From positions 1 to 51,108 of the forward strand of contig NZ_KQ130498.1 in the NCBI RefSeq assembly GCF_001050375.1: 51,108 nucleotides of DNA, in the 5' to 3' direction. The notes under the pieces are model-generated. The model was not told where the DNA came from and did not search any database. It saw only the letters and a program-made list of their open reading frames with translations. Positions 21,973 through 36,604 of this stretch are shown piece after piece (within the stretch, counting starts at the first letter, position 1; each line of letters begins with the position of its first letter). Position numbers and translations under genes: made by a program. The DNA comes from Catenovulum maritimum. GTDB taxonomy: Bacteria; Pseudomonadota; Gammaproteobacteria; Enterobacterales; Alteromonadaceae.

Positions 21973-22138
21973 AATTGGAATGCTAATTTTTTGGAGCTTG
22001 ATTCGTTTTTTGATGGCAAATTTTATGAAGCGGTCTAAGCTAAAAACGTTAATATAAAAATTGCGCATCATATTTAATGTGTTTATTTTACTTAGTTACT
22101 GAAATACAGAAGCTTAAGTTTAAATGGAGGTTTGTCGT

Positions 22139-22417
22139 ATGACTCAATATACGAGATATCAACTAGAAAAAATTGCCAATATTACTAAGGCTGAAGAAAT
22201 CCTGAATGATTTCAGAGAGCTTAAAGTTTTAGGGCAAAATGTAAAATTAGATGCCTCCCAAGTTGAGCGAATTGATACTTCAGTATTACAATTAATCGTC
22301 TCATTAAAAAAATCATTAAAAGAACAAGAATTAGAGCTCGAGATTGAAAATGCCAATCAAGTCGTGACAAATGCAGCTTGTATCTGTGGTTTAAATAAAG
22401 TTTTATCTATTAATTAA
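22139..22417 (+). CDS. STAS-domain protein of the chemosensory cluster
   Basis: 92 residues from ATG 22139, chosen because GGAGG (22126-22130) lies eight bases upstream; an earlier in-frame ATG at 22124 overlaps that site. The sequence is one STAS domain of the anti-sigma-antagonist type, with LDASQVERIDTSVLQLI carrying the Thr/Ser pair (47/48) where such proteins are phosphorylated. It is the first gene of the cluster, 20 bp before cheY. STAS genes are known next to some auxiliary chemosensory systems; the partner kinase or target is unknown. Confidence 0.85.
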   Translation: MTQYTRYQLEKIANITKAEEILNDFRELKVLGQNVKLDASQVERIDTSVLQLIVSLKKSLKEQELELEIENANQVVTNAACICGLNKVLSIN

Positions 22418-22437
22418 GTTAAATTGAAGGAAGTACA

Positions 22438-22800
22438 ATGAAAAAGATTCTAGCTGTAGATGATTCGGCTTCAATGCGCCAAATGGTTAGTTTCACATTA
22501 AAGAAAGCTGGTTTTGATGTAACAGAAGCTAAAGATGGTGTTGATGCATTGAATATAGCTAAAAGTAACACATTCGACTTGGTTATTTCAGATGTGAATA
22601 TGCCTAATATGGATGGTATCACTCTAATTGGTCATTTACGTGGCTTGCCTGATTACAAATTTGTGCCTATGTTAATGTTAACCACAGAATCAGGCTTAGA
22701 TAAAAAATCTGCTGGTAAGGCCGCTGGTGCAACAGGTTGGATTGTTAAACCATTTAACCCGGATCAGTTATTAGCAACTATTGGAAAAGTGTTGAGATAA
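22438..22800 (+). CDS. cheY: CheY-type single-domain response regulator
   Basis: 120 residues, one receiver domain. Acidic pocket D8 and D9, phosphorylation site D52 (ISDVNMPNMDG), T82/T83 and K104 (IVKPF) are all present; the switch aromatic (Tyr106 in E. coli CheY) is a Trp at 101. GAAGGA precedes the ATG. It is presumably phosphorylated by the adjacent CheA. Whether it acts on the flagellar motor or on another output is not shown by the sequence. Confidence 0.9.
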   Translation: MKKILAVDDSASMRQMVSFTLKKAGFDVTEAKDGVDALNIAKSNTFDLVISDVNMPNMDGITLIGHLRGLPDYKFVPMLMLTTESGLDKKSAGKAAGATGWIVKPFNPDQLLATIGKVLR

Positions 22801-22803
22801 CAT

Positions 22804-24939
22804 ATGAGTATAGATCTCAGTCAATTCTACGAAGTATTTTTTGAAGAAAGCTTCGAAGGATTGGATGCCATGGAATCCGAGTTATTAAACTTAGAGCCAG
22901 GCACCCCAGATAATGAAACAATTAATACGATTTTTAGAGCCGCCCATTCTATAAAAGGTGGAAGTGGTACATTCGGCTTTTCTGCCGTTGCTGATTTTAC
23001 TCATGTAGTTGAGACTTTATTAGATCAAATACGAGATGGACAAAGGCAACTCACGCAAGTACAAATCGATTTGTTTCTTCAATCTGTAGATTGTCTGAGA
23101 GAAATGCTTTCTGCGCTGCGTGATAGTGAAGAACCTGACACACAGGAAGCACAAGCGCTTAAAGCTCAATTTGAAGCTATTCTTGCTGGTGATGAACTAG
23201 CTGGGCTAGAGTCAAATCAAGTCACACCGGATGACAGCTCGAATACAGCTGTTGAAGAAGAGAGCCGCTTAGGCTGGCAAATTCAGTTTAAACCGGGCAA
23301 AGATATTTTAAAAACCGGTAATGAACCCATATACATGCTGCAAGAGCTTGGTGAAATTGGAGACGTTGAGCTTGATATAAACCTTGATTTTGTGCCCACG
23401 CTTGAAACTATAGAGGCAGAAGACTGTTATTTTAATTGGGATATTAAGTTAAAATCTGATTGTGATCTTGCAAAGGTAGATGAAGTTTTTGAGTGGGTTG
23501 TAGATGATTGTGAAATCAATATCACCCCATTAGAGACACTCGTTTCTGCAGTTGATGAAGAAGTATCTGAAAATGCGACTGAGTTAGGTCAAGCCCCTGC
23601 AGCAGAAGCCATTACACCAGCCGTAGAACCCGAAAATCAAGATAGTAGTCCAGCACAGTCAGCCAAAGTAACAGAAAGTACTCCAGCTAAAAAGGATAAC
23701 GCCCCTAAAAATGCGGAAGCCAGTTCGATTCGTGTCGGCATTGAGAAAGTTGACTCATTGATTAATATGGTGGGAGAGTTAGTGATAACTCAAGCTATGT
23801 TAACTCAGCTCTCTGAAGGCGATTTCGATAAAGCTAAATTAGTCAGCCTTCAAGAAGGTTTGGCGCAGCTAGCGCATAATACTCGTGATTTACAAGAGAG
23901 CGTGATGCGAATTCGCATGCTCCCTATTAGTTTTGTTTTCAGCCGTTTCCCGCGTTTGGTCAGAGATACAAGTAAAAAACTTGGCAAACAAATTGAGCTT
24001 AAGTTACTTGGCGAGCAAACCGAACTAGATAAAACAGTTATGGAAAAAATATCAGATCCTATGGTGCATTTAGTTCGAAATGCGATGGATCATGGTTTAG
24101 AAACGACTGAAGAACGTATTGCTTCGGGTAAATCAGAAGTTGGTTCAATCACTTTGAATGCTTTTCATCAAGGTGGCAATATAGTGATTGAGATTATAGA
24201 TGATGGCAAAGGCTTAAATACTGAAAAAATTAAGCAAAAAGCAATTGCTAATGGCCTAATTACTGAAAATAGTGACCTTACTGACGAAGAAATTAATTTA
24301 CTCATTTTTGAACCAGGCTTTTCGACAGCAGATCAAGTGTCAGATTTGTCTGGTCGAGGTGTAGGCATGGATGTTGTTAGACGTAATATTCAAGCTTTAA
24401 ATGGTTCGGTTGAGTTAGCGTCAACACCTGGTGAGGGTTCTACCTTTACGATTCGCTTGCCTTTAACTTTAGCTATTCTTGATGGCCAGCTGATACGTGT
24501 TGGTGAACATATTTATATTATACCTTTGGTTAATATTATTGAGTCACTTCAAATTAACCTTGAAGATGTTAATTGTGTTGGCGGTGAATATGATGTTTTA
24601 CGCTTAAGGGATGAATACATACCTATTATCCGACTGTTTGATTTGTTCAATCATGAACCAGACAGTAAAAAAATGGAAGATGGATTGCTGGTTGTCGTGG
24701 AGCATGATAATGAAAAAATCGGCATTTTAGTTGATGAACTATTAGCTCAGCAGCAAGTTGTCATTAAAAGCTTAGAAGCTAACTATATGAAAGTTGAAGG
24801 TGTCTCTGGCGCGACAATTTTGGGTGATGGCACAGTCTCACTTATAATCGATATCTCTGGTGCAATTAAATTAGCAGGGTTAAAGAAGAGTGTAAGACGG
24901 AGCATAGAAAAAGCGGTTGTTGATTTGGAGTCTGCTTAA
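22804..24939 (+). CDS. cheA: Chemotaxis histidine kinase CheA
   Basis: 711 residues. P1 phosphotransfer domain with H48 (FRAAHSIKGGSGTFGF); an acidic central region (about 155-255) that probably stands in the P2 place; a proline/alanine/glutamate-rich linker (about 260-305); P3 dimerisation (about 310-375); P4 ATPase with N box VRNAMDHGLE, DDGKGL (G1) and SGRGVGMDVV (G2); and a C-terminal CheW-like P5. All residues for kinase activity look intact. It overlaps cheW by one base, so the two are translationally coupled. Confidence 0.95.
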   Translation: MSIDLSQFYEVFFEESFEGLDAMESELLNLEPGTPDNETINTIFRAAHSIKGGSGTFGFSAVADFTHVVETLLDQIRDGQRQLTQVQIDLFLQSVDCLREMLSALRDSEEPDTQEAQALKAQFEAILAGDELAGLESNQVTPDDSSNTAVEEESRLGWQIQFKPGKDILKTGNEPIYMLQELGEIGDVELDINLDFVPTLETIEAEDCYFNWDIKLKSDCDLAKVDEVFEWVVDDCEINITPLETLVSAVDEEVSENATELGQAPAAEAITPAVEPENQDSSPAQSAKVTESTPAKKDNAPKNAEASSIRVGIEKVDSLINMVGELVITQAMLTQLSEGDFDKAKLVSLQEGLAQLAHNTRDLQESVMRIRMLPISFVFSRFPRLVRDTSKKLGKQIELKLLGEQTELDKTVMEKISDPMVHLVRNAMDHGLETTEERIASGKSEVGSITLNAFHQGGNIVIEIIDDGKGLNTEKIKQKAIANGLITENSDLTDEEINLLIFEPGFSTADQVSDLSGRGVGMDVVRRNIQALNGSVELASTPGEGSTFTIRLPLTLAILDGQLIRVGEHIYIIPLVNIIESLQINLEDVNCVGGEYDVLRLRDEYIPIIRLFDLFNHEPDSKKMEDGLLVVVEHDNEKIGILVDELLAQQQVVIKSLEANYMKVEGVSGATILGDGTVSLIIDISGAIKLAGLKKSVRRSIEKAVVDLESA

Positions 24940-25424
24940 TGAATATAGAGCAATTGAATGCACAGTTAGGTGAATTAGAAACGGAATTACAACCAGAAAA
25001 TATGAGCCAATACTTAACTTTTTTTATGGATAATGAAGAGTATGGTATAGATATTTTAAAGGTGCAGGAGATTAGGGGGTGGGAGTCGACAACTGCTATT
25101 CCAAATTCAGCTGAGTATATTAAGGGTGTCATTAATCTAAGAGGCACAATTGTACCTGTTATCGATCTCAGACTAAAATTCAGTATTGAAAACGTGCAAT
25201 ATACTGCTGTAACTGTGGTAATCGTGCTTAAATTAACCCAAGAAGGTAAAGAAAAAATAATGGGGGTTGTTGTTGATGCGGTTTCCGATGTCCACTCAAT
25301 TTCAGATTCTCAAATCAAAGTCTCGCCAGGTTTAGGCGACAATAACAATTCTAAATTTATTAAAGGTTTAGGCGTTGTTGGAGATAAAACCTTAATCTTA
25401 TTAGAGCTCAATGACGTATTATAA
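24939..25424 (+). CDS. cheW: Chemotaxis coupling protein CheW
   Basis: 161 residues, a single CheW SH3-like domain linking receptors to CheA. Seen: YLTFFMDNEEYGIDILKVQE, NLRGTIVPVIDLRLKF and VVVDAVSDVHSI, all typical. The TAATG overlap with cheA supports the start. It ends this part of the cluster; a 248 bp gap with short imperfect hairpins (for example AGCCT/AGGCT near 25448) separates it from the BLUF gene, so the downstream genes may have their own promoter. Confidence 0.95.
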   Translation: MNIEQLNAQLGELETELQPENMSQYLTFFMDNEEYGIDILKVQEIRGWESTTAIPNSAEYIKGVINLRGTIVPVIDLRLKFSIENVQYTAVTVVIVLKLTQEGKEKIMGVVVDAVSDVHSISDSQIKVSPGLGDNNNSKFIKGLGVVGDKTLILLELNDVL

Positions 25425-25672
25425 CTATCAGTATCCATTCTAATATCAGCCTTCTAGGCTCATTATAAAGGCTCTAAATAATAGGGCCTATTCTCAATAT
25501 TTTTTTCCCAGTTTGAAAATTTCCCAAATATTTTTTGATAAATATCGATTTTATTTGATCATTTTTGTTTTCTGAACTATTTCATTATTACACCTTATTA
25601 GATGTGATTTTATTAAACTAATTCTGCATTGTTTATTTCACTTTAATTTTAAGCACGTATTAAGGAAAAATT

Positions 25673-26116
25673 ATGCTCCAATATCAACTGGTTTATTACA
25701 GTGACGCAAGCAAAGACTTTAGCGAAGAAGAACTTGTTGAGTTGCTCAACAAAGCGATTAAAAATAATAAGTCCCTCGGAATAACGGGATGCTTATTATA
25801 TGGCAATAGACGATTTATTCAGTTATTAGAGGGACCTGAAGCAAGTGTTAGGGCTTTATACCAAAAAATAAGTACAGATCCTAGGCATTCTAATGTTATG
25901 CAGGTTATGGAGATGACAGTTAATAATAAGCTATTTCCCGATTGGTCTATGGGATTCAAACATGTTGGAAACATTTCTAATAAAATAGATGGGTATACAG
26001 ATGTTTCTAAATGGATTTACTCTGAGTTTGTCACTGATGCAAGTACAGCTAAAGAGAAGGTTTTCAATTTTGCTGTGAGAAACAAATTAATGGAATCACA
26101 AGTCCTACCAAAATAA
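25673..26116 (+). CDS. Stand-alone BLUF-domain blue-light sensor
   Basis: 147 residues, essentially one BLUF domain that binds flavin. The photocycle residues line up by number with the cyanobacterial PixD (Slr1694): Y8 (LVYYSD), N31/N32 (KNNKSLGITG), Q50 (RRFIQLLEG), W91 and M93 (FPDWSMGF). About 45 residues after the domain are helical and could be an interaction surface. An AAGGA precedes the ATG. There is no output domain, so it must act through a partner; its position between cheW and the receptors suggests the chemosensory complex. The family call is firm, the partner is inferred. Confidence 0.93.
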   Translation: MLQYQLVYYSDASKDFSEEELVELLNKAIKNNKSLGITGCLLYGNRRFIQLLEGPEASVRALYQKISTDPRHSNVMQVMEMTVNNKLFPDWSMGFKHVGNISNKIDGYTDVSKWIYSEFVTDASTAKEKVFNFAVRNKLMESQVLPK

Positions 26117-26277
26117 TAATTTATTTTCACGTGTATGATTTAGCAAATTTTTTTCTATTGACTAGTATGTAATTAAGAAGTCCGTTGAAGCAAAGTAACT
26201 AACTGTCGTTGCTAGGAATATAATTTTGATATGCCGCACTTCTCGGTGCTATAGCAAATATAAAAAGGGTAAAAAAC

Positions 26278-29200
26278 ATGGGTGTTTTGGATAGTTTTTT
26301 GGGTGGAAAATCGAATCGGCATTTGCAAGAAATAGTCAGCGCGATAAATCTTTCACAGGCAATGATTGAATTTGATTTAGATGGCCGAGTTCTCGCTGCA
26401 AATCAGAATTTTTTAAATGTAATGGGTTATGAACTTGAAGAGATTGTCGGAAAACACCACAGCATTTTTGTTGCACCTGATTACGCTAAAAGCAAAGAAT
26501 ACAGTGATTTTTGGCTCCAGTTAAAGCAAGGGAAAGCAGAAGCCACCCAATTTAAGCGTTATACCAAAAATGGAGACGAAATTTGGATTCAAGCTTCATA
26601 CAATCCAATTTTTGATGCCTCGGGTAAGCCTAAAAAAGTAGTTAAGTTTGCCACTGATATCACAGCGCAAAAAGCGGCAGAGCAAAAATCGATTGCCGAT
26701 GCGAATTATGCGAATGCGTTAAAGTCTTGCCAAGCCAACGTCATGCTTGCAGATAACGACCTGAAAATAGTTTACCTAAACGACACAGTCGAAAAAATGT
26801 TAAAAGGCAGAGAAGCTGAGTTGCGAACTGAACTGCCTAGTTTTGAGGTTGATAAATTAATTGGCACTTGCGTTGATGATTTTCACAAGCAGCCAGCCCA
26901 TCAAAGACAAATTCTCAGCACGCTCACAACAGCTTACTCCACCACCCTAAGTGTGGCAGGCCTCACTTTTAAATTAATTGCTTCACCTTGGATTGGTGCA
27001 CAAGGTCAGAGATTAGGAACTTTGGTTGAGTGGCAAGACTTAACTGAAGAAACTAGACGATTAGCTAGTGAAAAATTAATAGCCGCTAGTAATTCAAGAA
27101 CTAAAGCCGCTTTAGATGTTTGCCAGGCCAATGTCATGATGGCGGATGAAAATTATAATATCGTGTATGTTAATCAATCTGTTGTTGAGATGCTTAGAAG
27201 TAACCAACAAAAACTGAGAGAGGTTCTGCCAACTTTAGATGCAGACAACCTGATTGGTACTTCCATTGATAGCTTCCATAAAAATCCTGCACATCAAAGA
27301 AACTTGCTGGCTAATTTAACCGATGTTTATAAAACCAAGCTTAAACTGGTCGGTCTTACTTTTGACTTGATAGCAACACCTGTATTTGATGAAAGTGGCA
27401 AAAGACTCGGGACTGTGGTTGAGTGGCATGATTTAACCGAGAAGATCCGAGCGGAAGAAAAAGATGCTGAAAAGCAAAGATATACAACTCGACTAAAAGC
27501 CGCATTAGATGTTTGCCAAGCCAATGTCATGATGGCAAATACTGAATTAGAAATTTTATATGTAAACCATTCTTTGACTAATATGTTAAAAGTGAATGAA
27601 AGAGCAATTCAGACACAATTACCAGGTTTTAGTGTTGAAAAATTGGTTGGTACTTGTGTGGATGATTTTCATAAACAGCCGAGTCATCAAAGAGGTGTGA
27701 TTAGTCAACTGACAACGGCATATAATACCCAGTTAAATATTGGCGGTTTAATCTTTGATTTAATTGCAACACCAGTTATTAGTGAAGATGGTGAAAGGCT
27801 AGGTACTGTTGTTGAATGGAAGGATATGACTGAAGAGCTTGCCAGAAGGAAAGAAGAAAGAAGTATACATAATGAAAATTTAAGAATTAGGCAAGCTTTA
27901 GATAATGTGGCAACCAATACTATGATAGCGGATGCCGAAAATAACATTATCTACATGAATCGTGCGGTTAAACAAATGCTGGCAGATGCAGAATCAGATA
28001 TTAAAGCGCAATTGCCTAACTTTGACGCAAGTAACTTACTACATCAAAATATGGATGTGTTTCATAAAAACCCTGGGCACCAAAAAGGACTTATTTCTAA
28101 ATTATCGTCGACTTATTCAGCTCAAATTAATGTTGGAGTTCGGGTGTTTAGTTTAACGGCGAACCCTATTAAGAGCGATGATGGGGAAAGAATAGGTACG
28201 GTTGTTGAGTGGGTCGATCGCACAGAAGAAGTTGGTATTGAAAGAGAAATTGACAGCCTAATCGAAAATGCTTCTGCTGGCGATTTAAGTAGTCGTCTAG
28301 ATGAAACAGGCAAATCAGGCTTCTTCTTAAATTTATGCCAAGGCTTGAACAAATTGGTTGGTGTTGCTGACGGCATTATAAATGATACTGTCGTTATGTT
28401 GGACGCTATGGCACATGGTAATTTAACTAAGCGTATTGATGGCGACTACTCAGGCACTTTTGCTAAGTTGAAAGATGATGCCAATAGTACAGTCACTAAA
28501 TTAACTGAAATTATTGCTAGGATTAATCAGGCTGCAACAACAGTTGCCACAGGGGCAGATGAAATTGCTCAAGGTAATGCCGATTTAAGTCAAAGAACCG
28601 AAGAGCAGGCGTCTTCGCTAGAAGAAACCGCGTCAAGTATGGAAGAAATGACCAGTACAGTAAGACAAAATGCGGATAATTCTCAAATAGCTAATGACTT
28701 GGCGACTGAAGCCCGTAAAAAAGCAGCAGAAGGTGGCTCGGTTGTTGAGCGTGCTGTTTCTGCCATGCAAGGGATTAATCAATCTAGTAATCAAATTGCA
28801 GATATCATTGGAGTAATCGATGAGATTGCCTTCCAGACGAACTTGCTTGCGCTAAATGCAGCTGTAGAAGCTGCTAGAGCTGGTGAGCAGGGGAGAGGCT
28901 TTGCTGTTGTTGCTGGTGAGGTGAGAAATTTAGCTCAACGAAGTGCAGAAGCTGCGAAAGAAATTAAGAATCTAATTAGAGATAGCGTAGCTAAAGTCGA
29001 AGATGGCTCTAATTTAGTCAATGAATCCGGTGCAACTCTTGCGCAAATTGTGAGTGCAGTTGAGAGGGTGAGTCAAATGATTGCCGATATTTCAATTGCG
29101 TCTAATGAGCAAAGTACTGGTATAGAGCAGGTCAACAAGGCGGTTGCTCAAATGGATGAAATGACTCAACAAAATGCGGCGTTAGTCGAAGAAGCATCTG

Positions 29201-29421
29201 CCGCTGGTGAATCTATGTCAGAGCAAGCAAGAGCGATGAAGCAGTTACTCTCATTCTTTACGGTTGAATCAGGTAGTGATAGCCGACATGTTGAGTTAGT
29301 CGGACAAAATAGATCAGCAGCCCCACTTGCTTCGGTTAAACCAAAAACCCAAGAAAGCGCTAAGTTGCCTTCTGCAGCTATATCATTTGAAGAAAGCGAT
29401 GATGATTGGGAAGAGTTCTAA
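26278..29421 (+). CDS. Soluble multi-PAS methyl-accepting chemoreceptor, Aer2-like
   Basis: 1047 residues, no membrane helix, so cytoplasmic. Order: a canonical PAS-PAC (about 18-130); four tandem PAS repeats (about 146-258, 274-389, 404-519, 536-651), each with AN/TN-x-M-x-A near the start, D-x-FHK-x-P-x-HQ(R/K) in the middle and (L/V)VEW-x-D at the end; a double HAMP-like region (651-751, with AGDLSSRL and HGNLTKRI); the kinase-control hairpin (751-995; tip [20 protein letters not shown]); and a tail ending DWEEF. From memory the PAS signature matches the heme-binding PAS of Aer2/McpB, so oxygen or another heme ligand is the probable signal. An AAGGG precedes the ATG. A terminator follows. 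Confidence 0.9.
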
Positions 29422-29434
29422 ACACTAATAGAAT

Positions 29435-29464
29435 AAAAAAGCGTCAGTATTGGCGCTTTTTTTT
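29435..29464 (+). terminator. Rho-independent terminator after the first receptor
   Basis: Arms AAAAAAGCG (29435-29443) and CGCTTTTTT (29454-29462) with a 10-base loop, continuing in a run of eight T. It lies 13 bp after the stop codon. The second receptor therefore probably has its own promoter in the roughly 80 bp that follow. Confidence 0.85.
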
Positions 29465-29547
29465 CGTTTTAATCACAGTAAATTGATTTTTTGGTCTTGG
29501 ACTTCTGATATTATTGAATAATATCAATATCTTGAATGGGGTTTTTC

Positions 29548-32500
29548 ATGGGATTTGTACAAAATCTTAAATTATGGCAGAAGCTTTCTGCGGCATTATT
29601 ACTAATAGGTTTGTTACCTATGGTAATAGTGACACTTATGTCACTTAATTCAGCAACAAATTCACTGACTTCTCAAAGCTTTAATCAGTTAACATCAATT
29701 CGAGAAATTAAAGCCGCGGCTATTGAAAGGCACTTCAATGCTTCTCAAGCTAATATTAAAGCCTTCTCTAACAATTCAGCGGTTAAAGATGCGAGTGACG
29801 TATTCGTTCGAAGCTATGATAATTTTGTGCTTTCCCAAGGGCTTAATCAAACTGAAATAACAAAGCTTAAGCGAGATTTATCGACTTATTATCAAAGCGA
29901 GTTTGGTCGTGAATATAAATCACGAAACAACAAAGACATTACTACTGATAGGTTGTTGGACTCTATTTCTGGAACTGCAGTTGCGCTTCAATATGAGTAT
30001 ATAAAAGCTAATGAAAATCCTTTAGGTAGCAAGCATTTAAAGTCATTTTCGATGGATGGAAGTCAGTATGCTAATGCACATCAAAGATATCACAAAATGT
30101 TTGTCAGTATGCTTGAGGAGTATGGTTATTACGATATCTTCTTAGTTGACCCAGCGAAAGGGAACATAGTTTATTCTGTTTATAAAGAATTAGACTATGC
30201 TACATCCTTATATACAGGTCCCTATGCTGACACGAATTTTGCAGATGCAGTTAAGCGAGTTGTAGATAACGCTAAAAATGATATTTTAGATGTTGTTATG
30301 GTTGATTTTAAACCTTACACCCCTTCTTATGATGCTCCAGCTGCTTTTGTTGCTGCACCGGTAACAGACTTGTTTGGAGAGTTAATGTCTGTACTTGTGT
30401 ATCAATTACCTTACGAAGATATTAACAACATTATGACTGATCGCTCTGGTCTTGGCCTTACAGGTGAGAGCTATTTGGTTGGACCGGATAAACTGATGCG
30501 GTCTGATAGCTTTTTAGATCCTATAAACCACACAATTGCGAATTCATTTGTCAATCCAAGCTTAGGTACAGTGGCGACAAATGCAATTAAAGAAGCTATG
30601 GCTGGGAAAACTGGTGAAGCCATTATTAATAGTTACCATGGTGGAGAGGTCTTTTCTGCTTATAAACCGATTAAAATTGGTGATTTCAACTGGTTTTTGG
30701 TCGCAGAAATGTCTATCGATGAGGCGTTGTCATCGGTAAATGATTTAAGAAATTTGGTTCTAATTATTGGTGGTATTATTGCTTTGGTTGTTTTAGGCAT
30801 TGCTTTCGCCTTGTCTTCTTCAATCGCTAAACCTATTACAGCTTTAGCCAAAACGATAACTAAAATTCAAGAAAATGGTGATTTCCAAGTTAGAGCAGAC
30901 AACAAAAGTAAAGATGAAGTCGGAGATATTAGCCGAGCTTTAAATAGTTTTGTTGAAAATTTATCTCAGGTCTTTTCTGAGACCAATAAAACACTTCAAG
31001 CCGTGTCTCATGGTGATTTTTTAGCTAGAGTGGAAGGTCGCTATATCGGGGAGCTTGCTGAGCTTAAACTCGGTGTGAACCAAGCGATTGAAGGCATTCA
31101 AAGCGCAAATGATGAAAGTCTGAGGCAAGCTAAAATTGCTGCAGATAGTGCTGATGAAGCTCAAAAAATGGCGGATAGAATTTCAGCAGAAGCGGTTATC
31201 ACTTCTCGTTTAAAACAAGCCTTAGATAAATGTAATGCGAACGTTATGTTGGTTGATCCTGATTTAGATATTATCTATCTCAATGATTCCTTAAATGCGA
31301 CCTTTACCCGATATGCTGGAGATTTTGCTTCGAGCTTATCAAATTTCTCTATAGGCCATATTCTGGAATGTTCTCTTGAGCAATTTAATACTGAAGAGTT
31401 AAATATAGCCAACACGGTTAAGCAAAATAATCAAACCGAGACACATCAATATCTCATTGCGAGTTTAACCTTTGAATTAAGCTTTACGCCAGTCTTAAAT
31501 GATACTGGTGACCGTATCGGTACTGTTATTGAGTGGCAAGATAGAACCGAATTTTTAGCCCAGCAAAAAGAGGAGCGCAAAGTCGCTTCTGAAAATTTAA
31601 GAATTAAGCAAGCATTAGACGCATGTGCTGCGAATGTCATGCTAGCGGATAAAGATTTTAATATTATCTATTTAAATGATGCGGTAAAAGGTCTTTTAAC
31701 TGAAAGGGAAACAACACTAAATCAAGCTCTACCTCATTTTAGTGTTAAAGGTCTACTTGGAAGTAATATCGATGTATTCCATAAAACGCCGCAGCATCAA
31801 AGACAACTTTTAGCGGGACTAAAAGATACTTATACAACTCAAATTGAAATTGCAGGTTTAACTTTTAAATTAACGGCAACACCGGTTAATAATGAAGCTG
31901 GTGATCGCCTTGGTACTGTTGTTGAGTGGCTTGATTTAACCGAATCGTTAGCAAATGAAGCTAGAGAAAAAGCTATTTCGGAAGCTAATTCTAGAGTTAA
32001 ACAAGCTTTAGATAGTTCTTCCAATAACACTATGATTGCAGATGCTGAACATAACATCATTTACATGAATGAAAGTTTAAACAAGCTAATGCATGCTGCT
32101 GAATCAGACATCAAAGAAGTATTTACACAATTTAATGCTGATACTTTAGTTGGTAGCTCAATGGATATTTTCCACAAGCAGCCAAGTCATCAGCGCGCTT
32201 TAATCGAATCTTTAACTGATAGTTTTAAAACTGAAATTAAAGTTGGTCGAAGAATATTCTCATTAATTGCGAACCCGATTATCAGTGATACCCAACAACG
32301 ACTTGGTACTGTCGTTGAGTGGGAAGATAGAACTTTAGAAGTAGCTGTTGAAAATGAAGTGGCAGATATTGTTTCGGCAGCGTCTAATGGGGATTTATCA
32401 CAAAGGCTTAATCTGGATGACAAAACAGGGTTCTTTAGGTCATTGTCTGAAGGATTAAATCAGCTAGTGACAGCTTGCGATGATGCGATTCAAGATACAG

Positions 32501-33540
32501 TCGTTATGTTAGATGCTATGGCACATGGCGATCTAACTAAGAGAATTGAGAAGGATTACCAAGGTGCATTTGCGAAATTAAAAAATGACGCAAATGCGAC
32601 GGTTGAAAAGTTAACAGAGATTATTGGACGCGTGGATCATTCTGCTTCAACTGTTAGTGAAGGTGCAGATGAGTTAGCTCAAGGAAATGCAAATTTAAGC
32701 CAGCGAACAGAAGAGCAAGCTTCTTCATTAGAAGAAACCGCTTCTAGTATGGAAGAAATGACGAGCACAGTTAAGCAAAATGCAGATAATTCTAAAATTG
32801 CAGATGAATTAGCAGGGCAAGCTAAAGACAAAGCCGCTCAAGGTGGACAAATCGTTGAACGTGCAGTTAAAAGTATGGCTGAGATTAACGACTCAAGTAA
32901 ACGAATTGCAGACATCATTGGTGTGATCGATGAGATCGCTTTCCAAACTAATCTATTGGCTTTGAATGCTGCGGTTGAAGCAGCAAGAGCTGGTGAGCAA
33001 GGCCGAGGGTTTGCTGTTGTAGCAGGAGAAGTTCGAAATCTCGCTCAAAGAAGTGCTCAAGCTGCCAAAGAAATTAAAGACTTAATTCGAGACAGTGTCT
33101 CTAAAGTTGAAGACGGTGCTGCGCTTGTGAATGAGTCTGGAGCAACGTTGAAAGAGATTGTGATGTCGGTTGAGAAAGTAAGCCAAATGGTTGCTGATAT
33201 TTCTGTTGCATCTACTGAGCAAAGTAGTGGTATAGAACAAGTGAATAAAGCAGTTAATCAAATGGATGAGATGACGCAGCAAAATGCTGCATTAGTTGAA
33301 GAGGCATCTGCTACAGCTGAGTCTATGTCTGAACAGGCTAGAGCAATGAAGCAATTGTTATCTTTTTTTACAATCAACTCCCAGCATAAGGTTAGCTCAA
33401 CCGAAGCTATAGAGTTATTTACTCCTAAAGCTGAAGCTGAGTCTAATGCATTATCGCAAAGTACCTCGTCTACCCCAACTCGCCGAGATACATCTAATAA
33501 AATGAGCTTTAGCGAGGACGATGATTGGGAGGAGTTTTAA
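29548..33540 (+). CDS. Membrane chemoreceptor with periplasmic Cache-like domain and tandem PAS
   Basis: 1330 residues from ATG 29548, chosen over the in-frame ATG at 29536 because a GGGG (29538-29541) lies six bases upstream. Membrane helix about 12-32, a long periplasmic Cache-like domain (about 35-400, with [17 protein letters not shown] and [14 protein letters not shown]), second helix about 403-424, HAMP, then three PAS repeats (about 553-669, 685-800, 815-930), a double HAMP-like region and the kinase-control hairpin, ending DWEEF. Repeats two and three carry the FHK-x-P-x-HQR motif; repeat one has lost it ([11 protein letters not shown]) but keeps the final EWQD. The C-terminal half is nearly the same as that of the preceding receptor, so they are tandem paralogues. 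Confidence 0.9.
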
Positions 33541-34269: not shown

Positions 34270-34857
34270 ATGAATTGTTTCCCTTTTAAAGACGATGCAG
34301 AGCTAAAAAATAGCATAATTAGCTTAGCTAATCAGGCTATTAGTTATGCATTTTTACACAATGGTGATCGCTTACCGGATCATTTGATTGTTAAAAATCC
34401 AGAGCTCTGCGAGTCCATGGCTTGCTTTGTTTCTTTATCAGAAGGTGAGATGCTAAGAGGCTGTGTTGGCACGACTGTAGCTAATGACAGGTTAGATACC
34501 AACATAGCATGGTATGCCCATGAAGCTGCGTTTCATGACCCTAGATTTGACCCTATCCAAAGAGAAGATTTAACTAAGCTGACCGTTAAAGTTTCTTTGC
34601 TGTCTAAACCACTTCCTTTAGTTGTCGAAAATGAAGCTCATTTACTTGAACAGCTTGTACCTAATAAAGATGGATTAATCATTCAATACGGCCAATTAAC
34701 CGGTGTTTTTCTACCTTGTATGTGGCAAAAATTTAATTCACCTGAAGCTTTTCTTGTTGCTCTAAAGGAAAAAGCGGGATGGCCTCAGCATAGTTGGACC
34801 CAAGCAATGAAGGCAAGTGTCTTTCAAACTTACTATTTTGAAGGTCCTTTGGGCTAG
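34270..34857 (+). CDS. AMMECR1-domain protein (AmmA type)
   Basis: 195 residues, one AMMECR1 domain. The family hallmark LRGCVGT is present (MLRGCVGTTV), followed by AFHDPRFDPI and KVSLLSKP. Its biochemical role is unknown. The domain often occurs with a MEMO-like protein and a radical SAM enzyme (AmmeMemoRadiSam), but neither partner is next to it here. The last 125 bp overlap, antisense, the 3' end of the EAL-CBS-GGDEF gene. Confidence 0.88.
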   Translation: MNCFPFKDDAELKNSIISLANQAISYAFLHNGDRLPDHLIVKNPELCESMACFVSLSEGEMLRGCVGTTVANDRLDTNIAWYAHEAAFHDPRFDPIQREDLTKLTVKVSLLSKPLPLVVENEAHLLEQLVPNKDGLIIQYGQLTGVFLPCMWQKFNSPEAFLVALKEKAGWPQHSWTQAMKASVFQTYYFEGPLG

Positions 34858-36604
34858 TCTTTTTCTTTTGATAAACGTATAGGTTATTCCCCGGAATTGA
34901 TTTGGCCTTCTTTTTGGCTTCCATTGCATATTCTGATACATGGTGATGGGATAAACATATTTCAGGATCTGGAGTAATCAAACCGGTTGATAGGCTTAGC
35001 AAAGGATAAAAAAGACGTTGTCCGTCTCGACTTTGTCCCCAGTAACCTTTGGCTTTTAAGTGATTATCGCTAAAAAACTCACTTACCTTGAGTTCAAATT
35101 CTTTTAAAATCTGATTTAGAATTGATTGCCAATTATTTTTATAAAAGATGATGACAAAGTCATCACCACCTATATGACCACAAAAAGTATATTTATTGAT
35201 TGCCACTTTTTTAATTAAATTCGATAAAAGTAGAATCACTTCGTCCCCTTTCGCATAGCCATATTGGTCATTGAAAGGTTTAAAGTGGTTTAAGTCGAGA
35301 TAGGCAAAATAGAAGTTTTGTTTTTTCGCGAGTAAAGAATCAATTTCTTTATCTATTGGTACATTGCCTGGTAATTGGCTTAATGGATTAGAGTATTTTG
35401 CTCTTTCAATTTTTGCATCTGTGATGATTTTTAGTAATGTTCTGACCGAGCCCATACCTAGATACCTCCCTTTATCTGTAATCACAAAAGGCGTTCTGGC
35501 TTCTAAGCGTGTCTCATCCGTCAGAATTCGGCTCAAGTTCTCTAGAGGCAAGTTGGATTCTGCGATGATAAAATTGGTATCCATCAAGAAGCTGATTGGC
35601 TTGTTGTCGTATAATGCATGTCCTAGTGGCTGTGAAAAGAATTCCATTAATTTTTCGCGCATGACAATACCTACTACAGTGCTGCCATCGAGTATTGGAA
35701 TTGTGTACAGGTTCTTATCATTTTTAAATCTATCTAAAATAACTTTTGTTCTAGTATCCCAATGCTCACCTTTACAGGGTTTTAATAATTGAGCGACAGT
35801 TTCTTCCGGCAGTATACGACTTAAGTTACTCTCGCTGTTAAAGCTTTGCATCACATGCGGCATATCCGTTTTAGGCAGCTTAGATGGTTTCGCTAATAAA
35901 AAACCTTGGACGAAATTGATACCGAGATCTCTGACGCAAAGTAACTCGGCTTCTGTCTCAACGCCTTCAACAATTGTCATCGCATTAGTTTTATTTGCTA
36001 GTGATAATAAAGACTTTATAAACTCGCGTTTCATTAAATCTGAGTTGCATTCACGAATAAAGTATTTATCTATTTTGATCAGGTTAGGTCTTATTTTTGA
36101 CCATTGAATCAGCCCTGAATAGCCAGCTCCTAAATCATCAATCGCAAAGTTAATGCCTAAGGTCCGCAAGTTTTCGATACAAGAAATTAAATCATCTAGG
36201 TTGTCTGCGGGATTTTCTTCAGTGATTTCGATTACTAGTCTGTCACCGGTTAAACCAAATTTTCTTAGGGCTTGCTTAACTATCTCTATTTGGTTGAGCT
36301 CGCTGACTAAGAAGTTGGGCGTAACATTAAGGAATAATTTTCCCGGTAAGTTTTGTCTGGCAAAGGATTCAATCGCTTTCGCAAAACATATTTCTTCTAT
36401 TTGATTATACAAACCTGTTTCGTGTGCAATTTTAAATAACTCGAAAGGTGACTCTAATGGTGAGTGTTCAGGTCCTCTGCTGAGCGCTTCATATCCGAGA
36501 ATAGTTTGGCTCGATAAATTAAAAATGGGTTGGAAAACTGTATTTACGCTTTTATTCAGAATTATGTGATTAAGCAATAAATTATTATCGATAACTTGAG
36601 GCAT
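34733..36604 (-). CDS. EAL-CBS-GGDEF cyclic-di-GMP protein
   Basis: 623 residues, cytoplasmic. N-terminal EAL phosphodiesterase domain (about 15-250) with GYEALSRG, FLNVTPN, VIEITEE, AIDDLGAGYSGL, IKIDKYF, IVEGVE and VQGFLLAKP: all metal and catalytic positions appear intact. Two CBS motifs (about 265-400) may sense a nucleotide. The C-terminal GGDEF domain (about 410-575) has GGDDF near residue 480, Asp for the usual Glu, so cyclase activity is uncertain and this domain may be regulatory. The final 41 residues lie beyond a normal GGDEF domain and are encoded antisense to the AMMECR1 gene. It reads away from the DUF1289 gene. Confidence 0.92.
   Translation of the reverse strand: MPQVIDNNLLLNHIILNKSVNTVFQPIFNLSSQTILGYEALSRGPEHSPLESPFELFKIAHETGLYNQIEEICFAKAIESFARQNLPGKLFLNVTPNFLVSELNQIEIVKQALRKFGLTGDRLVIEITEENPADNLDDLISCIENLRTLGINFAIDDLGAGYSGLIQWSKIRPNLIKIDKYFIRECNSDLMKREFIKSLLSLANKTNAMTIVEGVETEAELLCVRDLGINFVQGFLLAKPSKLPKTDMPHVMQSFNSESNLSRILPEETVAQLLKPCKGEHWDTRTKVILDRFKNDKNLYTIPILDGSTVVGIVMREKLMEFFSQPLGHALYDNKPISFLMDTNFIIAESNLPLENLSRILTDETRLEARTPFVITDKGRYLGMGSVRTLLKIITDAKIERAKYSNPLSQLPGNVPIDKEIDSLLAKKQNFYFAYLDLNHFKPFNDQYGYAKGDEVILLLSNLIKKVAINKYTFCGHIGGDDFVIIFYKNNWQSILNQILKEFELKVSEFFSDNHLKAKGYWGQSRDGQRLFYPLLSLSTGLITPDPEICLSHHHVSEYAMEAKKKAKSIPGNNLYVYQKKKTSPKDLQNSKFERHLPSLLGSNYAEAIPLFPLEQQEKLQVN

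What the first reader, a model, noticed from the sequence alone, without database searches (positions are those of the whole stretch)
22139..33540. Chemosensory cluster combining Aer2-like heme-PAS receptors with a BLUF light sensor
Seen: STAS, CheY, CheA, CheW, a single-domain BLUF protein and two very large receptors in one direction. The receptors' PAS repeats share D-x-FHK-x-P-x-HQR and VVEW-x-D, which I recall as the signature of the heme PAS of Aer2/McpB (axial His and ligand-stabilising Trp). In Pseudomonas and Vibrio, Aer2 belongs to an auxiliary chemosensory cluster with CheR, CheD and CheB. Here those genes are missing from the locus and a photoreceptor is present. The cluster directly follows the cytochrome oxidase operon. 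Inference: oxygen (or NO/CO) and blue light are integrated in one array. This is the best candidate in the window for an undescribed system.
Basis: partly seen in the sequence, partly recalled or inferred. Interest (0 to 1): 0.75.

Follow-up and report, generated by a model that had tools for sequence, protein, structure and literature searches.

The report
Oxygen-sensing chemosensory cluster with blue-light gene
A marine bacterium carries a known type of oxygen-sensing signalling array whose gene cluster has gained a blue-light sensor; the light-sensor gene and the oxygen-sensing part of the receptor appear together again in a distant bacterium, which hints that the two work as one light-and-oxygen sensor.

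Summary
In detail: STAS, CheY, CheA, CheW, single-domain BLUF and two large Aer2-type receptors lie in one direction behind a cytochrome oxidase operon. It is a known kind of system, the ancestral F7 (Aer2) chemosensory system of gammaproteobacteria (PMC7184735). Six of seven Aer2-type PAS repeats keep the heme histidine; all seven keep the tryptophan.

CheR, CheD and CheB are not lost: a linked F7-like cheR-cheD-cheB set lies on another contig, and apart from cheA in all six other genus members with F7. BLUF near chemotaxis genes has been reported (Spongiibacter, PMC8805636).

What looks new is the BLUF-receptor pair. None of the six other F7 clusters in the genus has it, but a Saccharospirillaceae MAG has a 55%-identical BLUF immediately upstream of an Aer2 receptor. 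That receptor is chimeric: its PAS tandem groups with the window's first receptor, its signalling domain does not. Separately, three other genera of the family carry BLUF directly behind cheB of F7-like clusters.

Best reading: BLUF is an accessory blue-light input to the Aer2 array, probably acting on the receptor's PAS stack. Interaction and output are untested. New variant of a known kind.

The parts
22124..22417 (+). STAS-domain protein (anti-sigma-factor-antagonist type), first gene of the F7 cluster
   Evidence: Pfam STAS_2 8.8e-09; first gene of F7 stage 1 in PMC7184735
22438..22800 (+). CheY of the F7 system
   Evidence: Pfam Response_reg 5.5e-27; 82-93% identical to CheY in the five genus F7 clusters where it was called (missed by the ORF picker in G005)
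22804..24939 (+). CheA of the F7 system
   Evidence: Pfam Hpt, H-kinase_dim, HATPase_c, CheW; tree
24939..25424 (+). CheW
   Evidence: Pfam CheW 1.1e-32
25425..26277 (.). 853-bp segment between CheW and receptor 1 that holds BLUF; in the six other genus F7 clusters CheW and the receptor gene are 13 to 53 bp apart
25673..26116 (+). single-domain BLUF blue-light sensor, 147 aa
   Evidence: Pfam 7e-31; Tyr8, Asn32, Gln50, Trp91, Met93 present and invariant in 11 aligned BLUFs
26278..29421 (+). receptor 1: cytoplasmic Aer2-like receptor, one Aer/MmoS-like PAS, four Aer2-type PAS, HAMP region, 36H-like signalling domain, C-terminal DWEEF
26320..26688 (+). N-terminal PAS of receptor 1, like MmoS and Aer (flavin-type by homology)
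   Evidence: 3EWK 7.5e-18, 8DIK 5.5e-13; that these bind FAD is partly recalled (Aer: passages of PMC13401364)
26710..28236 (+). four Aer2-type PAS repeats with period 393 bp (131 aa); His203/334/465/596 and Trp252/383/514/645
29404..29418 (+). C-terminal pentapeptide DWEEF of receptor 1 (CheR/CheB tether type)
   Evidence: motif x-[HFYW]-x(2)-[HFYW] given in PMC7184735
29435..29462 (+). terminator-like hairpin between the two receptor genes
   Evidence: pattern match only
29536..33540 (+). receptor 2: two predicted membrane segments around a dCache-like domain, HAMP, three Aer2-type PAS (first without the heme His), HAMP, signalling domain, C-terminal DWEEF
   Evidence: the hydropathy scan also gave a borderline peak at residues 270-288
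31213..32346 (+). three Aer2-type PAS repeats of receptor 2; Asn618 replaces His in the first, His749 and His880 present

Best explanation
The locus encodes an ancestral-type F7 (Aer2) chemosensory array. Cytoplasmic receptor 1 and membrane receptor 2 carry stacks of heme-PAS domains that bind oxygen and control the F7 CheA through CheW; the phosphate passes to the F7 CheY, not to the flagellar F6-like system. Adaptation enzymes (cheR-cheD-cheB) are encoded on another contig. The BLUF protein is an accessory subunit: on blue light it changes its contact with the receptor, most likely with the PAS stack of receptor 1, and so shifts the oxygen response of the array. Output is probably a stress response (RpoS-type partner switch) rather than swimming. 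Shown by sequence: gene content, domain types, heme and flavin site residues, relocation of cheRDB, and shared ancestry of BLUF plus PAS region with a distant genome. Inferred: cofactor binding, BLUF-receptor contact, direction of the effect, output.
For: F7 identity: gene order STAS-cheY-cheA-cheW-aer2, signalling domain aligned with Tsr at equal length (707-999 to 228-520), CheA tree. Heme-PAS. BLUF-receptor link: L130 has BLUF (55%, residues 1-146) ending 19 bp before an Aer2 receptor. BLUF pair 99/95 among 49 BLUFs. PAS tandem pair L130 + receptor 1 99/97, while the signalling domain of L130 goes with G063 (100/99). Forcing L130 with receptor 1 in the signalling tree is rejected (p-AU 1.5e-12), and forcing L130 with G063 in the PAS tree is rejected (p-AU 0.012). 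BLUF lies within 10 kb of a CheA match in 5 of 31 genomes having both, 0.275 expected. Output: PMC7184735 abstract reports evidence that ancestral F7 arrays act in a stress response. In L130 the BLUF follows a STAS gene and a REC-SpoIIE-HATPase gene, the make-up I recall for CrsA/CrsR; PMC9855816 introduction ties CrsR/CrsA at the Che1 locus to RpoS.
Against: BLUF and the receptor's PAS-coding end are neighbours, so one transferred fragment would carry both without any functional tie. Only two genomes have this exact pair: 3 of 369 class genomes and 5 of 390 genomes of L130's order matched the pair alignment, and the six besides the window and L130 were partial matches, none beside Aer2 in the stretches held (16 kb for two, 2.0-3.4 kb for four). 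L130 comes from a MAG. In the window the BLUF has 248 bp and 161 bp of non-coding DNA on its sides, so it may have its own promoter. In the BLUF tree the chemosensory-linked BLUFs do not form one group (5 changes for 11 rows, at least 2 forced by starred branches), so the window BLUF is not kin of the one behind cheB. BLUF may instead act on CheY, STAS or an unlinked partner. The BLUF structure model was too poor to use (pLDDT 52).
Confidence: 0.5

Rival explanations
1. Passenger: the BLUF gene landed in the F7 operon by chance insertion and serves an unrelated light response from its own promoter; the pair in L130 is only a shared transferred fragment.
For: None of the six other F7 clusters in the genus has BLUF; wide AT-rich gaps around BLUF; BLUF genes are common (134 of 395 family genomes); genus BLUFs sit at an unrelated spot; in most BLUF genomes examined BLUF and CheA are far apart.
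Against: Recurrence in different arrangements with F7-like clusters; in L130 the gene lies between two F7-type genes, 72 bp after one (from its likely ATG) and 19 bp before the other; retention of the pair after recombination within the receptor gene.
Confidence: 0.27
2. BLUF acts on the output side: it binds the STAS/partner-switch or CheY branch and gates a general stress response to light, without touching the receptor.
For: L130 order McpA-STAS-(REC-SpoIIE-HATPase)-BLUF-Aer2; in G063 BLUF is divergent from a McpA-STAS-(REC-SpoIIE-HATPase)-cheY-cheA cluster; STAS gene in the window cluster; a STAS plus REC-SpoIIE-HATPase pair elsewhere in the window genome; PixD acts on a PATAN-CheY protein in Synechocystis (PMC5812497, passages).
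Against: BLUF shares history with the receptor's PAS region; the window's own REC-SpoIIE gene is on another contig, and a homologue is present in G002, which has no F7 CheA match at 1e-100.
Confidence: 0.15
3. BLUF controls transcription or expression of the chemosensory genes, as reported for Spongiibacter nanhainus CSC3.9, so that light sets the amount of array and not its activity.
For: PMC8805636: BLUF gene immediately upstream of a chemotaxis cluster whose expression rises in blue light in the wild type and not in the BLUF deletion (passages and section 6).
Against: A 147-aa BLUF without a DNA-binding domain match; in L130 the BLUF is inside a run of same-strand genes.
Confidence: 0.08

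Closest known systems
F7 stage-1/2 (Aer2) chemosensory systems of gammaproteobacteria (V. cholerae, P. aeruginosa, S. oneidensis Che1; PMC7184735, PMC9855816)
   Same: STAS-cheY-cheA-cheW-aer2 order, 36H-like receptors with tandem heme-PAS and pentapeptide, separate F6-like system in the genome
   Different: cheR-cheD-cheB on another contig; no mcpA-STAS-phosphatase tail at the locus; BLUF gene inside; second, membrane-type Aer2 receptor with dCache-like domain
BLUF beside a chemotaxis cluster in Spongiibacter nanhainus CSC3.9 (PMC8805636)
   Same: single-domain BLUF immediately next to chemotaxis genes in a marine gammaproteobacterium; genetic data show light response
   Different: cluster includes motA/motB; its F class and an Aer2 neighbour are not stated in the parts I read; effect reported on expression and motility
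PixD of Synechocystis (PMC5812497, passages)
   Same: short BLUF protein feeding a motility-signalling chain
   Different: partner is a PATAN-CheY protein; no heme-PAS receptor
AppA-PpsR of Rhodobacter sphaeroides (PMC4844311, passages)
   Same: blue light (BLUF) and oxygen/heme integrated in one pathway
   Different: AppA is one protein with a SCHIC heme domain and controls transcription, not a chemosensory array
Leptospira interrogans Aer2, membrane-bound PAS-heme sensor (named in PMC13401364, passages)
   Same: membrane-bound Aer2 with three PAS, as in receptor 2
   Different: no BLUF link seen in the passages; domain order of that protein not compared here

Membership tests
F7 (Aer2-type) chemosensory system | CheA of the F7 class | tested here: met
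   Tree of 21 CheA: window CheA with F7-type clusters of the family, E. coli CheA on that side, own F6-like CheA apart at 100/100; the branch holding E. coli and the F7-type rows has only 86/84
F7 (Aer2-type) chemosensory system | gene order STAS-cheY-cheA-cheW-aer2-cheR-cheD-cheB (stage 1) | tested here: inconclusive
   First five present with BLUF inserted; cheR-cheD-cheB linked to each other but on another contig
F7 (Aer2-type) chemosensory system | 36H receptor with C-terminal pentapeptide | tested here: met
   Equal-length match with Tsr over 293 residues; DWEEF ends
Aer2 heme-PAS receptor | PAS repeats homologous to Aer2 PAS structures | tested here: met
   3VOL 5e-50, 4HI4 8e-38, 6CEQ 9.1e-19 for one repeat of receptor 1; receptors below the NF041847 cut-off of 1200 bits (910 and 698)
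Aer2 heme-PAS receptor | axial His (H234 in P. aeruginosa) and ligand-stabilising Trp | tested here: met
   6 of 7 repeats have the His, 7 of 7 the Trp; H234 from a PMC13401364 passage, Trp number recalled
Aer2 heme-PAS receptor | binds b-type heme and oxygen | not testable with these tools
   needs spectra of purified protein
BLUF photoreceptor | BLUF domain with Tyr, Asn, Gln, Trp/Met of the flavin site | tested here: met
   Pfam 7e-31; residues present
BLUF photoreceptor | flavin-bound, light-driven red shift | not testable with these tools
   needs spectra
Orthologue of the Spongiibacter BLUF-chemotaxis pair | same BLUF lineage and same cluster class | not tested
   Spongiibacter sequence was not retrieved; the genome-contig scan confirmed only L130-L132

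The most novel reading that the evidence does not exclude
BLUF and the heme-PAS stack of the Aer2 receptor form one two-gene photo-oxygen sensor: a soluble flavin light sensor that docks on a cytoplasmic chemoreceptor array and gates its oxygen signal. The unit moves between bacterial orders as a module independent of the kinase-control domain. BLUF was recruited to F7-type arrays more than once.
Probability: 0.33. Interest if true: 0.82.

Novelty: new variant of a known kind. Interest (0 to 1): 0.58.

Why it matters
[quoted passage not shown] A photoreceptor joined to their oxygen receptor would point to photo-oxidative conditions (light plus oxygen) as a natural input and gives a directly testable two-protein system. 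It would also show a soluble photoreceptor as an accessory input to a chemoreceptor array.

Tried and rejected
Loss of adaptation enzymes was rejected: a CheR-CheD-CheB set is on contig C6 of the window genome. The second CheR and CheB lie on C7 with flagellar-type genes and an F6-like CheA.

A special BLUF C-terminal tail as proof of a partner surface was weakened. Tail identity between window and L130 BLUF (54%) equals core identity (55%); this ranks 4th of the 273 pairs (of 1097 scored) in the 40-70% core range, but pairs that are sisters in the BLUF tree rank close by.

BLUF as a recent foreign gene by composition: GC 0.349 against 0.383 for the window, not decisive.

AlphaFold of BLUF with a two-row alignment gave mean pLDDT 52 and was not used; no fold search was run.

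Whether the relocated CheR is of the pentapeptide-binding kind: it lacks a two-residue stretch that E. coli CheR has in one loop, as does G025's F7 CheR. What that means is recalled only, so no conclusion.

CrsR-like gene as proof of F7 output: a match at 1e-20 in all 14 genomes searched, G002 without an F7 CheA match included, so not specific.

Promoter scan: fewer sites than in shuffles (29 against 37.9), uninformative.

Papers: BLUF with Aer2 or chemosensory terms, BLUF with CheA/chemotaxis/genomic context, BLUF with methyl-accepting and gene cluster, BLUF with phototaxis/CheA/Shewanella/Alteromonas. Of the papers opened, only PMC8805636 puts BLUF beside chemotaxis genes; the listings were not read paper by paper, and the library holds open-licence papers without preprints.

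It also gave 6 bp before the L130 BLUF, counted from the longest ORF; from the likely ATG it is 72 bp.
Full report
What is there. The window holds, in one direction, STAS (22124-22417), CheY (22438-22800), CheA (22804-24939), CheW (24939-25424), a single-domain BLUF (25673-26116) and two large receptors (26278-29421 and 29536-33540), all confirmed by Pfam. Upstream is a cytochrome c oxidase operon with its assembly genes; downstream are DUF413 (MaoP, name recalled) and AMMECR1 genes.

Receptors. Both match the Vibrio Aer2 model NF041847 strongly but below its curated cut-off (910 and 698 of 1200 bits). Receptor 1 has no membrane segment by hydropathy. It starts with a PAS most like MmoS and Aer (3EWK 7.5e-18, 8DIK 5.5e-13; the name MmoS for 3EWK is recalled), then four Aer2-type PAS with a 131-residue period. 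The fourth repeat matches the P. aeruginosa Aer2 structures 3VOL (5e-50) and 4HI4 (8e-38). His and Trp stand 49 residues apart in all four repeats. The heme ligand H234 of P. aeruginosa Aer2 is stated in PMC13401364 (passage); that the partner Trp is residue 283 is recalled. Receptor 2 has two strong hydropathy peaks and one borderline one, a dCache-like region between the two (dCache_1 4.7e-08, below the Pfam cut-off), a HAMP, and three Aer2-type PAS, of which the first has Asn618 at the His place. Both end in DWEEF, the tether motif of PMC7184735. Over 293 residues the signalling domain of receptor 1 matches Tsr at equal length, as expected of class 36H.

Class. [quoted passage not shown] The window follows this order with one cheW, BLUF inserted and the part after the receptors absent. 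In a tree of 21 CheA, the window CheA lies with the F7-type clusters of its family, E. coli CheA on the same side (86/84), and the genome's other CheA plus one from L130's genome lie apart (100/100). That other CheA sits on contig C7 near CheY, CheB, CheW and flagellar-type genes, with a CheR on the same contig, so the swimming system is most likely separate. Gene names there come from BLAST against my reference set and from reading the ORFs.

Adaptation genes. The window genome has 2 CheR, 1 CheD and 2 CheB matches. One CheR, the CheD and one CheB are adjacent at G000:C6, 59-61% identical to those of the F7 cluster of G025. The same linked trio, away from cheA, is in G001, G003, G004, G005, G006, G007 and in G042 of another genus. 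G025, G027 and G036 keep the trio directly after the receptor or cheW at the same place behind the cox genes. G002, the eighth genus member, has no CheA match at 1e-100 and no CheD. So the split is older than these species.

BLUF within the genus. The genus has 8 genomes. The window genome has one BLUF match. In the six other genus genomes with an F7 cluster, CheW and receptor are adjacent (13-53 bp) without BLUF, and there is one Aer2-type receptor at the locus (my ORF picker missed STAS and CheY in G005). In G042 CheW is also directly beside the receptor, whose gene is cut by the contig end. Five genus members carry another BLUF (33-39% identical to the window's), in a conserved spot beside yfbR-, aminotransferase- and MFS-like genes (names recalled).

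BLUF near F7 elsewhere. In 98 relatives, 37 genomes had a BLUF match (1e-5) and 58 a CheA match (1e-100). Of 31 genomes with both, 5 had them within 10 kb (G000, G018, G023, G026, G063); 0.275 expected with random placement (counts typed by hand). If G018, G023 and G026 are counted once, the chance of three or more is about 0.003 under the same simple model. In a family sample, 134 of 395 genomes had BLUF. CheA (1e-120) was sought in 80 of the 104 BLUF genomes not among the relatives; 24 were not searched, and one search lists only its best matches. Two more close pairs appeared, G138 and G166. Thus G018, G138, G166 (one genus), G023 and G026 have cheY-cheA-cheW-receptor-cheW-(ParA-like)-(STAS-like)-cheR-cheD-cheB followed directly by BLUF (Pfam of the two middle genes for G023 and G018 only). 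In G063, of the same order but another family, BLUF is divergent and 646 bp from a McpA-like gene that heads a complete McpA-STAS-(REC-SpoIIE-HATPase)-cheY-cheA-cheW-aer2-cheR-cheD-cheB cluster. In the other examined genomes BLUF and CheA are far apart or on different contigs.

The BLUF-Aer2 pair. A genome-contig scan with the window BLUF gave 66 candidate stretches and 3 confirmed loci. The best, L130, a Saccharospirillaceae MAG, has BLUF 55% identical over residues 1-146, in the order McpA-like, STAS-like, REC-SpoIIE-HATPase, BLUF, Aer2-like receptor (680 aa, two PAS with His and Trp motifs, ending DWEAF), CheD. From its likely ATG the BLUF starts 72 bp after the phosphatase gene and ends 19 bp before the receptor. 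L131 and L132 show no chemosensory match nearby by my references. L130's genome has a cheR-cheY-cheA-cheW-mcp-cheD-cheB cluster on another contig. A profile of the two BLUFs found 3 of 369 class genomes and 5 of 390 genomes of L130's order at 1e-25; only the window and L130 matched over the full length. Of the six others, G519 and G477 (16 kb each) show no chemosensory gene by my references, G843 has two response-regulator-like ORFs beside it in 3.4 kb, and G809, G824 and G919 show none in 3.3, 3.3 and 2.0 kb.

Shared history. BLUF of window and L130 group at 99/95 among 49 BLUFs. The other chemosensory-linked BLUFs lie elsewhere in that tree: the five behind cheB form their own clade (98/98), so these are separate recruitments or transfers. 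L130's PAS tandem groups with receptor 1 at 99/97 and is 61% identical to it against 56% or less for the others. L130's signalling part groups with G063 at 100/99 and receptor 1 with its genus (96/98). On the same 14 rows, holding L130 with receptor 1 in the signalling tree is rejected (p-AU 1.5e-12), and holding L130 with G063 in the PAS tree is rejected more mildly (p-AU 0.012); the groups were named after seeing the trees. So L130's receptor is a chimera whose junction lies near the PAS-HAMP border, and BLUF went with the PAS side. Since BLUF is next to the PAS-coding end, linkage alone could do this; the data show shared descent, not contact. Direction of transfer is not settled.

How it most likely works. 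The heme-PAS stack reports oxygen to the F7 CheA; BLUF adds blue light, most likely at the PAS stack of receptor 1. PMC9855816 (introduction and section 3.2) reports b-type heme in Shewanella Aer2 and links the Che1 locus to an RpoS partner switch; PMC7184735 (abstract) reports evidence for a stress-response role. A STAS-like plus REC-SpoIIE-HATPase pair is present at G000:C3, but homologues of the second gene occur in all 14 genomes searched. A stress output is therefore inference. AppA in Rhodobacter joins BLUF light sensing and heme-based oxygen sensing (PMC4844311, passages), which shows that the logic exists in another frame.

Known or new. F7/Aer2 arrays are known. BLUF beside a chemotaxis cluster, with deletion data, is known from Spongiibacter nanhainus (PMC8805636; passages, sections 6 and 9). 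I found no report of BLUF paired with an Aer2 receptor in the searches, within an open-licence library. I rate it a new variant of a known kind.

Noticed in passing
L062:13751-17187, L121:13858-16265, L061:3130-4556: In the BLUF-bearing F7-like clusters of G023 and G138 a second, degenerate BLUF with an N-terminal extension follows the first; REC-EAL and PAS genes follow in G023 and a GGDEF gene in G018.
   Followed up: partly
L126:6027-10677, L124:4074-8747: BLUF genes directly next to 1390-aa CheB-CheR-PAS-GGDEF-EAL proteins in G023 and G110.
   Followed up: partly
L125:911-7085: In G027 a cheA-mcp-cheW-cheR cluster (CheA 33% identical to the window's, a long outlier in the CheA tree) has BLUF directly after cheR and a second BLUF on the other strand.
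   Followed up: no
L064:7603-11891: In G063 a BLUF gene stands divergently, 646 bp from the McpA-like gene that heads a complete F7-type cluster.
   Followed up: partly
window 26710-32346: Aer2-type PAS repeats keep a 131-residue period here, in the genus receptors with more than one motif match, and in G025, G036 and L130; it is 124-127 in five more distant receptors. Repeats that match the full His motif number 1 to 4 among genus receptors, which should change array height.
   Followed up: partly
window 34733-36604 (-): EAL-CBS-GGDEF protein on the opposite strand whose ORF overlaps the end of the AMMECR1 ORF.
   Followed up: no
L004, L005, L006, L014, L015: Five genus members have a BLUF gene at a conserved spot between a yfbR-like gene and an MFS-like gene on the other strand; the window genome shows one BLUF match only.
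   Followed up: partly
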